From an uncultured Bacilli bacterium (GTDB lineage: Bacteria; Bacillota_I; Bacilli_A; RF39; UBA660), in the NCBI GenBank assembly GCA_947623625.1, contig CANQHD010000005.1, positions 1 through 39,618 of the forward strand: DNA of 39,618 nt, given 5' to 3'. Below are positions 21,049-25,388 of this stretch, piece after piece; position 1 is the first letter of the stretch; each line of letters opens with the position of its first letter. The notes beneath the pieces were generated by a model. The model was not told the DNA's origin. It did no database searches and was given only the letters and a program-made list of their open reading frames with translations. Made by a program: the position numbers and the translations under genes.

Positions 21049-23031
21049 ATGAAATTCATTAAGAAATTATTAAAATGGTTTTGTTTTCTTCTTTTTCTTT
21101 TTATTTTAGGAAATGTTGGCGTTTATGTTTATGCAAAAATAACACCGAAGCTTCAGATTAAGAGTGCGAATAGTTTTATGCTTTTTGACAATAACAACAA
21201 CGTCTTCTTTCAAGGAAGTGGATCAAGAGAATGGATTGGATTAGATGATATTTCAGATCATTTAATTTTAGCAACAGTTGAGACTGAAGATCAACATTTT
21301 TATCAGCATAAAGGTTTTGATTTTGCTCGTATTTTAAAAGCTTTTATGGCAAACATTGCATCACGAAGTAAAAGTCAAGGTGCCAGTACAATTTCTCAAC
21401 AATATGCCAAAAACTTATTTCTTGATTTTGATAAAACTTGGAAAAGAAAATGGGATGAAATGTGGTATACGATTGAATTAGAATCAGACTACAGCAAAGA
21501 CGAGATTTTAGAAGGATACTTAAATACTATTAATTATGGTCATGGAATGTATGGAATTGAAAATGCAAGTAAGTTTTATTTTAATAAAAGTGCCAGTGAG
21601 TTAACACTCGCAGAAAGTGCTATGTTAGTAGGAATTCCGAAATCACCTTCCAATTATTCCCCACTTGTTAATTTGGATAAAGCAACCAACAGACAACACT
21701 ATGTTTTAAAAACGCTTCTGAATCATAAAAAAATTACGGAAGATGAATACAACAAAGCTATCCATGAACAATTAACTTATGTTGGTGAGAAAACGCAAGA
21801 AGAGTTGACAACCATAATGTATTATCAAGATGCAGTAATGAAAGAGTTAAAGACAATCAAAGAAATTCCATCGACTTTTCTTGAAACTGGTGGATTAAAA
21901 ATTTATACAAATCTTGATTTAGAACAACAAAAAAAATTAGAAGCAACGGTTAAAGAAGCCATTCCAGCTGATTCTACAATTGAAACAGCAACTGTTGTAA
22001 TGGATCCAAATACAGGAAAAGTTTTAGCTCTTGTTGGAGGTCGAGATTACAACAAATCTTCTTACAATCGTGCAGTGGATGCGATGAGACAAGTTGGATC
22101 AACAATGAAGCCCTATCTTTATTATGCAGCTCTTGAAAATGGATTTACTTCATCCAGTACTTTTACAAGTGAAAAAACAACATTTACATTTGCTCAAAAT
22201 AAAACATATTCTCCACAAAATTATAATGAAACTTATGGAAATAAACCGATTTCAATGGCAACAGCAATTGCTTACAGTGAAAATATTTATGCTGTTAAAA
22301 CACATACTTTTTTAGGCTATGATACTTTGATTAATATGGCAAAACGTGTTGGTATTACTGCCAAATTACAACCAGTTCCATCTCTTGCTCTTGGAACAAG
22401 TGAAATTAATATGTTAGAAATGGCTGCTGGATATGCTACTTTTGCAAACGAAGGATATAAAGTAACACCACACTTTATTGAGCGAATTGAAGATAAAGAG
22501 GGAAATATTTTATATCAAGCGGATGAAGAAAAAGAGCTTGTTTTAAATCCAAATCTTACATTTATTTTAAACAATTTGTTAACGAGTACTTATGATGCTG
22601 ACTTTATTGATTATAACTATCCAACGGCAATTAGTATCGCTCCAAAATTAACACATAAATATGCCCTAAAGTCTGGAACAACGAATACAGATACTTGGTA
22701 TATTGGTTATAATCATGATGTTTTAACTGCTACCTGGTGTGGATATGACGATAATAAAGAGGTTGCTGTAAAAGAATATAAATATTCCCAAACAATTTGG
22801 CTCAAGACAATTGAAGCTTATATGGAAGGAAAAGAAGATGCTTGGTATGAAAAACCAGATGGTGTCTCTGGTGTTTTAGTAGAACCCATCTCAGGACATC
22901 TTGCAACGGAAGCAGATGCGAAGAAAAAAATGATGTATTTCTTAAAAGGAACCGAACCCCTCACCACAGAAACAGTTTTTGATGAATTGCTAGAAGATAA
23001 TCAAGAAGAAGATGAAAAGACACCCTCATGA
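21049..23031 (+). CDS. class A penicillin-binding protein (transglycosylase/transpeptidase)
   Basis: GT51 block ETEDQHFYQHKGFD, GASTISQQYAKN; transpeptidase QVGSTMKP, YSENIYA, KSGTTNTDTW. Confidence 0.96.
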   Translation: MKFIKKLLKWFCFLLFLFILGNVGVYVYAKITPKLQIKSANSFMLFDNNNNVFFQGSGSREWIGLDDISDHLILATVETEDQHFYQHKGFDFARILKAFMANIASRSKSQGASTISQQYAKNLFLDFDKTWKRKWDEMWYTIELESDYSKDEILEGYLNTINYGHGMYGIENASKFYFNKSASELTLAESAMLVGIPKSPSNYSPLVNLDKATNRQHYVLKTLLNHKKITEDEYNKAIHEQLTYVGEKTQEELTTIMYYQDAVMKELKTIKEIPSTFLETGGLKIYTNLDLEQQKKLEATVKEAIPADSTIETATVVMDPNTGKVLALVGGRDYNKSSYNRAVDAMRQVGSTMKPYLYYAALENGFTSSSTFTSEKTTFTFAQNKTYSPQNYNETYGNKPISMATAIAYSENIYAVKTHTFLGYDTLINMAKRVGITAKLQPVPSLALGTSEINMLEMAAGYATFANEGYKVTPHFIERIEDKEGNILYQADEEKELVLNPNLTFILNNLLTSTYDADFIDYNYPTAISIAPKLTHKYALKSGTTNTDTWYIGYNHDVLTATWCGYDDNKEVAVKEYKYSQTIWLKTIEAYMEGKEDAWYEKPDGVSGVLVEPISGHLATEADAKKKMMYFLKGTEPLTTETVFDELLEDNQEEDEKTPS

Positions 23032-23043
23032 TGTCTTTTTTTT
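23015..23043 (+). terminator. intrinsic terminator of the PBP gene, stop codon inside the loop
   Basis: AAAGACA-ccctcatga-TGTCTTT-TTTTT. Confidence 0.7.
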
Positions 23044-23104: not shown

Positions 23105-23233
23105 AACCAATTCTCAGGCGAATACACTATATATAAATACAATGACACTAATTTAGTAAATCATATTGAAATTTTTGCTGATGAATTGATTGTACAGCTA
23201 TCTAAAATAATAAAAGTCATCTATTGCATCTAA
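23105..23233 (+). pseudogene. possible 3' gene remnant
   Basis: ATG-less open frame NQFSGEYTIYKYNDTNLVNHIEIFADELIVQLSKIIKVIYCI* with protein-like composition. Confidence 0.25.
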
Positions 23234-23806
23234 AATTTTGTATATACTTGTATGCGGATTTGCTTTTATTAACTCTTCTTTATCACTAATGGCTTTTTGT
23301 TCCAAAGACTTTGCAGTGGCTCTTGCTTCAGCAGTATGCTTTTTTATACTTTTATACATATCCATAGTTTCTGAATAGGTTCCATTTACCTTTACTATTT
23401 CTTTTTTTACATCTTGGCTACTATTAAATTTTAATTTATTTGCTCTATAATGCAGCAAATACCATATTTCAAATGTTGGAGCTGAAGTTATTATTTCTAT
23501 ATTGTGTTCTAAACATTTTCTTTCTATTTCTTTGATTTCGTTTATTCTTCTATCAACTAAATCCGTATCTAATACTAAAAATATTCTTACATTATCTTCT
23601 GATTCAATATCTTCATTTTGCATATATTTTAGCAAATCAGAAAACATACCTTTGGGGTCTGTACTATTTCCTGTTGAAAATTGTATTCTCAAATTTCTAG
23701 TACGATAATTTCTAAAATAATAGTACTCTGAAGACTTTATCCCACCCTCGGAGCATATGACAATTAATGGTATTTTTTTGTGTTGTTTTAATTGTCTTCT
23801 AGCCAT
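23198..23806 (-). CDS. RloB-like (AbiLii-like) TOPRIM protein
   Basis: IVICSEGGIKSSEYY, FLVLDTD, APTFEIWYLLHY motifs; overlaps the ATPase gene by 19 nt. Confidence 0.85.
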   Translation of the reverse strand: MARRQLKQHKKIPLIVICSEGGIKSSEYYYFRNYRTRNLRIQFSTGNSTDPKGMFSDLLKYMQNEDIESEDNVRIFLVLDTDLVDRRINEIKEIERKCLEHNIEIITSAPTFEIWYLLHYRANKLKFNSSQDVKKEIVKVNGTYSETMDMYKSIKKHTAEARATAKSLEQKAISDKEELIKANPHTSIYKILDAIDDFYYFR

Positions 23807-25056
23807 AAATCAACATCTTTTATAAATGGAATTGCACCGTATCTACCATTTATATAACCCTTCTGAATATTTTCATCTTTTCTTACAGAAAATGAATCAA
23901 GTGGATATAAATCAGAAATACCTGTTTTAGAATTTTTTTCAGTAAACCAAATTTGATCTCTTCTTAATAAATCAAGACTTAATAGATTTGTTGCATGTGT
24001 CATAAATATTAACTGACTATTCGCTTTATTCATATTTTTATTGTTAAATAATTTTACAATAAACTCTGCTAATGCTGGATGCATACTTTTCTCTAATTCA
24101 TCAACAACCATTACTTTAGTACTTTCAAATGCTCTTTTTAAAAAGGGGGCCAGAGCGAATAATACACGTGTACCAGAAGATTCGTCATCAAAATTCAATT
24201 TATAGTAATGTGTGTTATTTTTTTCGTCAACCACTTCATGATCTAGTTCAATATTTACATTAGATATTTTAAAAACTTTATTTGTTCTAGCAAGTGGAGG
24301 AATAAACATATTAATCATTGTATTATCCATTTCTTTTTCTTCATAATCAACATGTATGTCTTTAATTAATATATCAGCTTCTTTTAATAATTTTAAAGCA
24401 AACTCTTTTAAATTTTTATTATCACTACTGTATTCTTTTAAGTCTTGATCTGAAATATTATAAAAAGAATCATATGTATCTATCACATTGCTAAACCATA
24501 GATAGGCATCTTTCGTTTTGTCATAATTCCAGTTTGTTGCGGTAGATAAGAACAATTTGTTTTCCGTATTTTTTACTTTCAATGAATCTAATTTGTTTTT
24601 ATCATGGTTAAAATCATAGATATCTGTTTGAGTTCTTGTAAAAATATTGGTTGGTTTTTGTGTATAATATGCATCTAAAATTTCATCATAGATTTTATTA
24701 ACATCTGCACTGAAGAAGTATCTATATTTTACATTATTAGCTACAAAGATAAATTCAAATTCACTAGGATTATTTTTGGTTTTTTCATCGAATAAAAAGG
24801 GCTTCAAAAAACTCCATTTACCTCCTACTGGAATTAAGTTAGAATTTTTAACCATAAGTATTGCACAAGCAAAAGCTTTTAATAAGTTAGATTTACCAGA
24901 TGCATTTGCTCCATATATAGCTGCTGTTTTTAGCAAATTCAATCCATCTTTAGTCATTATATTATCTAAATTTTCATCGCCATTACCTTTTTCCATTGAC
25001 AATGTTACTTTATCTTTAAAAGATAAAAAATTTTTAACACTAAATTCAATAAGCAT
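23788..25056 (-). CDS. AAA15-type ATPase (RloA/AbiLi-like); start moved to MLIEFSVKNFLSF
   Basis: NFLSFKD, Walker A GANASGKSN, Walker B KVMVVDELEKSMHP, SQLIFMTHATNLL; GGAGGAG SD before ATG at 25056. Confidence 0.88.
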   Translation of the reverse strand: MLIEFSVKNFLSFKDKVTLSMEKGNGDENLDNIMTKDGLNLLKTAAIYGANASGKSNLLKAFACAILMVKNSNLIPVGGKWSFLKPFLFDEKTKNNPSEFEFIFVANNVKYRYFFSADVNKIYDEILDAYYTQKPTNIFTRTQTDIYDFNHDKNKLDSLKVKNTENKLFLSTATNWNYDKTKDAYLWFSNVIDTYDSFYNISDQDLKEYSSDNKNLKEFALKLLKEADILIKDIHVDYEEKEMDNTMINMFIPPLARTNKVFKISNVNIELDHEVVDEKNNTHYYKLNFDDESSGTRVLFALAPFLKRAFESTKVMVVDELEKSMHPALAEFIVKLFNNKNMNKANSQLIFMTHATNLLSLDLLRRDQIWFTEKNSKTGISDLYPLDSFSVRKDENIQKGYINGRYGAIPFIKDVDLWLEDN

Positions 25057-25301
25057 AATTATCTCCTCCAATAATATTATACTCTTTTTTATGAAAAAAC
25101 TTGTTTATTTTTATAAAATTTGTATTTTTTTCACAAATTTATAAATAATATTCATATTTTAACTGTTATTTTTGTTTTTGGCAATACAAATATTATTTAA
25201 GTTTCATTTTTATATCATATTTTTCCTCTTGAATAAACCAACTGTACGTCAAATATAAATTTTTTTCTTCATGCACTTTCCTAGTATAATTGTTCATCTA
25301 A

Positions 25302-25340
25302 AAAAATAAATCTGTGGATAAAACAAATTTATTTTTTCTT
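25302..25340. terminator. possible bidirectional terminator between pduL and the ATPase gene
   Basis: AAATAAAT ... ATTTATTT flanked by A- and T-tracts. Confidence 0.4.
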
Positions 25341-25388
25341 TTATTCTAATTTTTTTTGAAGAAACTCAAATGCTTTCAAAGTTTTATT

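What the first reader, a model, noticed from the sequence alone, without database searches (positions are those of the whole stretch)
23198..25056. Two-gene AAA15 ATPase + RloB operon: RloA/RloB (AbiL-type) candidate phage-defence module
Seen: translationally coupled genes (19-nt overlap). The first encodes an ATPase with Walker A GANASGKSN, Walker B VMVVDELEKSMHP and an SQLIFMTHATN motif. The second encodes a TOPRIM-like RloB with SEGG, LVLDTD and APTFEIWYLLHY motifs. Known: ATPase/RloB pairs occur as RloA-RloB near type I RM loci and as AbiLi-AbiLii; PARIS uses a comparable AAA15 + TOPRIM (DUF4435) logic. Inference: a stand-alone toxin-like effector held by an ATPase and released on phage sensing. 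There is no RM or other defence gene beside it, so it may be a solitary acquired cassette in a housekeeping region.
Basis: partly seen in the sequence, partly recalled or inferred. Interest (0 to 1): 0.75.

Follow-up and report, generated by a model that had tools for sequence, protein, structure and literature searches.

The report
AbiL-type (RloA/RloB) phage-defence gene pair
This is a genuine two-gene bacterial anti-virus module of an already described type (an ATPase plus a toxic nuclease-like partner) that was inserted as a compact cassette between two household genes; what is new here is a conserved mirror-image DNA site in front of it, shared with many relatives in unrelated bacteria and phages, which looks like its own control switch.

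Summary
Observation confirmed: ATPase 23788-25056(-) and RloB 23198-23806(-) overlap by 19 nt, with every quoted motif present. PADLOC AbiLi (310.7 bits) and AbiLii, and Pfam AAA_21 and RloB (77.5 bits), all hit; AAA_15 and DUF4435 do not. The pair is an acquired cassette. Four congeners have the two flanking genes adjacent with nothing between them. One congener has an 82/86% identical pair elsewhere, more alike than its flanking genes. Homology to about seven relatives at other sites starts ~135 nt upstream and ends at the RloB stop. The genome carries a second, divergent pair. RloB is TOPRIM-like by profile (E20, D80, D82, E113 conserved), though Foldseek against PDB gave no TOPRIM hit. It is therefore a new member of a known kind, AbiL/RloAB. 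Most likely it is an abortive-infection pair: the ATPase restrains and senses, RloB is a nucleic-acid-cleaving effector. The target (tRNA or DNA) was not tested. Unexpected: a 19-bp dyad, TTTG-N11-CAAA (window 25119-25137), lies upstream of 48/131 non-redundant relatives' ATPase genes versus 8/743 control regions. Its arms covary, and it sits at helically phased distances from the -10 box. I found no earlier description. Self-regulation through this site is inferred, not shown.

The parts
23788..25056 (-). AbiLi/RloA-type ABC-fold ATPase gene (422 aa)
   Evidence: AbiLi 310.7 bits; AAA_21 122 bits; AlphaFold mean pLDDT 89.5; Foldseek: Rad50, SMC heads, PtuA, OLD
24886..24912 (-). Walker A GANASGKSN (aa 49-57)
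   Evidence: sequence; G49, G54 and K55 identical in 56/56 homologues
24076..24114 (-). Walker B and following segment VMVVDELEKSMHP (aa 315-327)
   Evidence: D319, E320 and H326 identical in 56/56
23986..24018 (-). H-loop segment SQLIFMTHATN (aa 347-357)
   Evidence: H354 identical in 56/56
23198..23806 (-). AbiLii/RloB effector gene, TOPRIM-like (202 aa)
   Evidence: Pfam RloB 77.5 bits, cut-off 31.5; AlphaFold mean pLDDT 94.8; profile relation to OLD TOPRIM, 0/200 shuffles as good
23741..23752 (-). TOPRIM-like motif 1, SEGG (E20)
   Evidence: E20 and G21 identical in 78/78
23561..23578 (-). TOPRIM-like motif 2, LVLDTD (D80, D82)
   Evidence: D80 78/78; D82 is D in 71 and E in 7
23462..23473 (-). 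Third acidic motif FEIW (E113)
   Evidence: E113 78/78, W115 77/78
23788..23806 (-). 19-nt gene overlap (translational coupling)
   Evidence: coordinates; short overlaps or gaps typical of the relatives
25119..25137 (-). Conserved 19-bp dyad TTTGTGAAAAAAATACAAA, candidate operator, starting 81 nt upstream of the ATG
   Evidence: 48/131 relatives vs 8/743 controls; arm covariation
25076..25081 (-). -10-like box TATAAT, 56 nt from dyad start to box start
   Evidence: 21 of 22 perfect TATAAT boxes downstream of a dyad lie at 56-58, 66-67 or 79 nt
23207..25196 (-). Extent of the mobile cassette (promoter region plus two genes), as shared by copies at unrelated insertion sites
   Evidence: homology blocks begin between 25158 and 25196 and end between 23207 and 23216 in G005, L062, L063, L064, L065, L066 and L067

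Best explanation
A horizontally acquired AbiL-type (RloA/RloB) abortive-infection module. Shown here: an ABC-fold ATPase and an RloB protein with a complete set of TOPRIM-like acidic residues are translationally coupled and travel together as a ~2-kb unit consisting only of a promoter region and the two genes. Inferred: the ATPase oligomer binds RloB, keeps it inactive and senses a phage-made trigger; ATP-dependent rearrangement frees or activates RloB; RloB then cleaves a host nucleic acid (tRNA, by analogy with AriB of PARIS, or DNA, by analogy with OLD/GajA) and stops growth before phage release. Also inferred: expression is set by a protein that binds the conserved dyad as a dimer. Because the cassette carries no regulator gene, the likeliest binder is a product of the cassette itself.
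For: Family profiles. Second pair in the same genome. Empty sites with the flanking genes PBP1A and PduL adjacent in G001, G003, G004 and G005. Patchy presence: RloB above cut-off in 48/395 class genomes, and 4 of 60 relatives match this RloB. The G005 copy is 86/82% identical while its PBP1A and PduL are 79/63%. RloB follows the ATPase in 129 of 136 testable homologous loci, on chromosomes and in viral contigs, and also on plasmids and annotated phages. Relatives sit beside CBASS, type I R-M, an integrase and transposases. TOPRIM relation: hhalign E 1e-4, 0/200 column shuffles as good, aligned on E20 and D80/D82. RloB disrupted beside a full-length ATPase in about 10 loci. Published toxicity of AbiLii/RloB relatives.
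Against: No phage assay exists for this pair. Foldseek against the PDB did not retrieve a TOPRIM structure for the RloB model, and hhalign probability against OLD TOPRIM is only 48-58%. The one published antitoxicity test of an AbiLi was negative. The asymmetry of RloB versus ATPase decay was not tested properly: the ATPase-anchored search favours intact ATPases, and the RloB-anchored set held one frameshifted ATPase in 29.
Confidence: 0.68

Rival explanations
1. Same family, but the ATPase is a co-effector or activator rather than an antitoxin: RloB acts only as part of an ATPase-RloB complex that loads on its substrate, as in OLD/Gabija-type ATPase-nucleases.
For: AbiLi of F. nucleatum did not neutralise AbiLii, and L. 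lactis AbiLii alone was not toxic in E. coli (PMC3985639). In OLD proteins both domains are needed (PMC10568477). The ATPase model resembles Rad50/SMC/PtuA/OLD heads.
Against: A Clostridium RloB-type/AAA pair is presented as a toxin-antitoxin pair in neutralisation assays (PMC10440598). About 10 loci have RloB broken beside an intact ATPase, as expected if RloB is the costly part, although the sampling was biased.
Confidence: 0.25
2. The dyad is the binding site of a conserved host transcription factor (class-I activator-like position in Firmicutes), not of a cassette product.
For: Dyad centre lies about 48, 58 or 70 nt upstream of the -10 box, phased by helical turns, as for class-I activators (general knowledge); the window's promoter has no recognisable -35.
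Against: The same half-site recurs in Bacilli, Clostridia, Proteobacteria and phages, and the inner bases change by lineage while staying complementary. In the genus the pattern is no commoner than its reversed control (17 vs 19 sites), so it is not an obvious regulon.
Confidence: 0.3
3. An inert, decaying remnant of a defence module.
For: Related copies are broken in several genomes.
Against: Both reading frames here are full length with every conserved catalytic residue, and the promoter dyad and -10 box are kept.
Confidence: 0.07

Closest known systems
AbiL (AbiLi/AbiLii) of Lactococcus lactis
   Same: Two-gene ATPase plus RloB organisation in the same order; PADLOC AbiLi and AbiLii profiles hit both proteins
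   Different: Chromosomal in a small-genome Bacilli MAG rather than plasmid-borne; the closest annotated Lactococcus phage homologue of the ATPase is only 27.7% identical; no phage phenotype known
RloA/RloB of type I restriction-modification loci
   Same: RloB family (Pfam) beside an ATPase
   Different: No R-M or other convincing defence gene in the 39.6-kb window; some relatives do lie by R-M genes
PARIS (AriA/AriB)
   Same: Separate ABC ATPase and TOPRIM-type effector genes
   Different: Effector is RloB, not DUF4435; DUF4435 not found in this genome; profile relation to DUF4435 weak
OLD / Gabija GajA / Retron-Eco8 effector
   Same: ABC ATPase joined in function to a TOPRIM domain; shared E and DxD motifs
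   Different: Two proteins instead of one, and no helicase or reverse transcriptase partner

Membership tests
AbiL / RloAB | AbiLi-type ATPase profile match | tested here: met
   PDLC02335 AbiLi 2.5e-93, best of all PADLOC models
AbiL / RloAB | AbiLii/RloB profile match | tested here: met
   Pfam RloB 77.5 bits over cut-off 31.5; PADLOC AbiLii 6.1e-14
AbiL / RloAB | Adjacent, same strand, ATPase first | tested here: met
   19-nt overlap; same order in 129/136 relatives
AbiL / RloAB | Intact Walker A/B and conserved RloB acidic residues | tested here: met
   residue counts over 56 and 78 homologues
AbiL / RloAB | Protects against phage by abortive infection | not testable with these tools
   needs a plating assay
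RloA/RloB in type I R-M loci | Linked hsd genes | tested here: not met
   no R-M family among window genes
PARIS | DUF4435 AriB partner | tested here: not met
   no DUF4435 match for this RloB or in the genome
TOPRIM superfamily | E after strand 1 and DxD after strand 3 in a TOPRIM fold | tested here: inconclusive
   motifs, strand order and profile comparison agree; Foldseek against PDB found no TOPRIM structure

The most novel reading that the evidence does not exclude
AbiL/RloAB modules across phyla and phages are controlled through a portable 19-bp operator (TTTG-N11-CAAA) recognised by one of their own two proteins, so the defence pair is also its own transcription regulator and its half-site specificity drifts with the cassette.
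Probability: 0.35. Interest if true: 0.6.

Novelty: new member of a known kind. Interest (0 to 1): 0.4.

Why it matters
The gene pair is a known kind of system, so by itself it adds one well-supported member in small-genome gut Bacilli. What would matter is the conserved dyad. Regulation and triggering of AbiL have no description that I could find in the open-access library. A cis site shared by modules in Firmicutes, Proteobacteria and phages, with arms that covary and phased spacing to the -10 box, gives a direct experimental handle: purify AbiLi and RloB and ask which one binds it, and whether phage infection releases it.

Tried and rejected
Core gene pair: rejected by empty sites and patchy distribution. 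Retron or other hidden RNA component: no Rfam match at E<=1 around the cassette. PARIS membership: DUF4435 absent. RNA hairpin instead of DNA dyad: disfavoured, because G-T combinations at pair 6/14 occur about as often as column composition predicts (my estimate) and the site lies upstream of the phased -10 box in Firmicutes; not excluded. Dyads with other half-sites in the remaining 83 loci: 12 found, not clearly above chance, not claimed. Direct PDB sequence search for RloB: only spurious hits. Shuffling only mononucleotides gave too low an expectation for the dyad (0.6); replaced by dinucleotide shuffles (mean 2.1) and real upstream controls.

Full report
OBSERVATION. The ATPase runs 23788-25056 on the minus strand (422 aa) and RloB 23198-23806 (202 aa), overlapping by 19 nt; all six quoted motifs are in the translations. 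Pfam gives AAA_21 (5.9e-35) and RloB (2e-21); PADLOC gives AbiLi (2.5e-93) and AbiLii (6.1e-14). AAA_15 itself is not among the Pfam hits, so 'AAA15' is only a loose label. The downstream end meets the convergent PBP1A gene, with a terminator-like hairpin at 23015-23039.

SETTING. The window is part of contig 5 of a 1.14-Mb, 94.9%-complete assembly. Its close relatives in the genome collection are mostly titled uncultured Bacilli. The immediate neighbours are household genes: arginyl-tRNA synthetase, a class A penicillin-binding protein, phosphate propanoyltransferase (PduL), GerQ, LemA and an SpoU methylase. No convincing defence neighbour was found among the 37 other window genes; four PADLOC models matched one member each, and I did not trace these.

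AN ACQUIRED CASSETTE. In G001, G003, G004 and G005 the PBP1A and PduL genes are adjacent, with a gap of a few tens of bases and no cassette. G005 carries an 82/86% identical pair elsewhere, beside KsgA and an ImmA/Fic gene. Its PBP1A and PduL proteins are only 79% and 63% identical to those of the window genome. G002 has a 48/32% pair between mutS and nusB. The window genome itself carries a second, divergent pair (32/26% over the aligned parts) next to rpsD and a DDE transposase, with a longer, 299-aa RloB. Copies at unrelated sites share sequence from about 25158-25196 down to 23207-23216, that is, promoter region plus two genes ending at the RloB stop, and nothing outside. RloB above the Pfam cut-off occurs in 48 of 395 genomes of the class. 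This is the pattern of a mobile accessory module, not of a core pair.

THE FAMILY AT LARGE. An ATPase-anchored search gave 80 loci in bacterial and archaeal genomes and 77 in viral contigs. Of 136 loci with a testable downstream ORF, 129 encode RloB. In the reverse direction, most of 29 RloB-anchored loci in the class have the ATPase directly upstream. The pair also lies on plasmids and in annotated phage genomes, including a Klebsiella Peduoviridae phage between replication and portal genes and a Lactococcus prophage after the lysin gene. Neighbours of the relatives include CBASS cyclase and SAVED genes directly downstream of an 80%-identical copy (L064), a phage integrase, type I methyltransferase and specificity genes, AbiEi, and transposases. 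In about ten loci RloB is frameshifted, interrupted or deleted beside an intact ATPase, once (L061) by insertion of a PD-(D/E)XK-type gene. That fits RloB being the costly, toxic part, but the search favours intact ATPases, so I give it little weight.

WHAT THE PROTEINS ARE. Over 78 diverse RloB sequences E20, G21, E27, Y30, D80 and E113 are invariant, and D82 is D or E; over 56 ATPases the Walker A lysine, the D-E of Walker B and the H-loop histidine are invariant. The RloB model is confident (mean pLDDT 94.8), with E20 after strand 1 and D80/D82 at the end of the third main strand. Profile comparison with OLD TOPRIM domains taken from the same class gives E 1e-4, aligned on the E and DxD, and none of 200 column-shuffled profiles scores as well; the relation to DUF4435 (AriB) is weaker but also beyond shuffles. 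Foldseek against the PDB did not return a TOPRIM structure, so the TOPRIM claim is supported by profile and motif, not settled by fold. The ATPase model matches Rad50, SMC heads, PtuA and OLD.

MECHANISM. Direct precedent is thin. F. nucleatum AbiLii is toxic in E. coli, L. lactis AbiLii is not, and the tested AbiLi did not neutralise (PMC3985639). A Clostridium algidicarnis RloB-type toxin with an AAA partner is presented as a toxin-antitoxin pair, and its authors speculate that it is an abortive-infection system (PMC10440598). PARIS, an analogous two-gene ATPase/TOPRIM system, holds its tRNase AriB in an AriA hexamer until a phage trigger arrives (PMC12409363). The best account is therefore an ATPase-restrained or ATPase-licensed nucleic-acid-cleaving effector. 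Presence, family and intact active sites are shown; restraint, trigger and target are inferred.

AN UNEXPECTED PROMOTER ELEMENT. Comparing upstream regions revealed a 19-bp dyad, TTTG-N11-CAAA, at window 25119-25137, starting 81 nt before the ATG. It occurs within 200 nt upstream of 48 of 131 non-redundant relatives, against a mean of 2.1 in dinucleotide shuffles and 8 of 743 upstream regions of other genes from the same loci; neighbouring spacings stay at background. Controls are on average less AT-rich (55% vs 66%), which the shuffles and the spacing comparison correct for. The inner arm positions change together: 40 double-change cells against 17.3 +/- 3.4 in shuffles, 0 of 500 as high, and the signal vanishes when the register is slid by one base. 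Pairs include TTTGCA/TGCAAA, TTTGTG/CACAAA, TTTGAC/GTCAAA and TTTGGT/ACCAAA. Additional plasmid and phage records gave 3 of 17 exact, and RloB-anchored class loci 10 of 22, some of these overlapping the first set. Of 22 perfect TATAAT boxes downstream of a dyad, 21 lie 56-58, 66-67 or 79 nt from the dyad start, one or two helical turns apart, although their distance to the ATG varies from 22 to 78 nt. Many of these loci are related, so the binomial figure printed there overstates significance, but several lineages agree. In Proteobacteria and phages the dyad lies closer to the start (34-54 nt) and sometimes contains TTGACA or TATAAT. In the genus the pattern is not otherwise enriched. The cassette has no regulator gene, so I infer that one of its own proteins binds; a conserved host activator remains possible. 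Dedicated regulators of other defence islands (BrxR, RptR) bind different repeats (PMC9122601, PMC12255303), and my paper searches found no AbiL operator; subscription journals are mostly not in that library.

VERDICT. The finding is correct and largely ordinary: a new member of AbiL/RloAB. The promoter dyad is the part worth following.

Noticed in passing
window 25119-25137: Conserved TTTG-N11-CAAA dyad upstream of the ATPase, shared with many AbiL/RloAB loci in other phyla and phages and phased to a -10 box; candidate operator.
   Followed up: yes
window 25192-25380: Just upstream of the cassette: a decayed repeat. 25300-25380 is an AT-rich palindromic repeat (contains TGTGGATAA) that recurs in several congeners, often within 20 bases of contig ends, and 25192-25295 keeps a 34-aa ORF like a remnant in G003:C10; probably the end of an old insertion sequence.
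   Followed up: partly
L038 8532-10737 (contig 7 of the same genome): Second AbiL pair in a 1.14-Mb genome, with a 299-aa RloB carrying an internal extension; G417 of the same family has a similar-length one. Upstream it has a dyad of the same geometry but other outer bases, AATGTGAAAAAATCACATA.
   Followed up: partly
L061 7242-8943: RloB of a close relative is split by a ~1.2-kb insertion carrying a PD-(D/E)XK-type gene (PADLOC PDC-S02), a defence candidate nested inside another defence gene.
   Followed up: partly
L064 1655-4701: An 80%-identical AbiL pair is followed at once by a CBASS SAVED effector and an oligonucleotide cyclase.
   Followed up: partly
L183 7223-7951 and L189 6396-7097: AbiLi-like ATPases in viral contigs with a different partner gene in place of RloB (about 230 aa, no RloB similarity), possibly an effector swap.
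   Followed up: no
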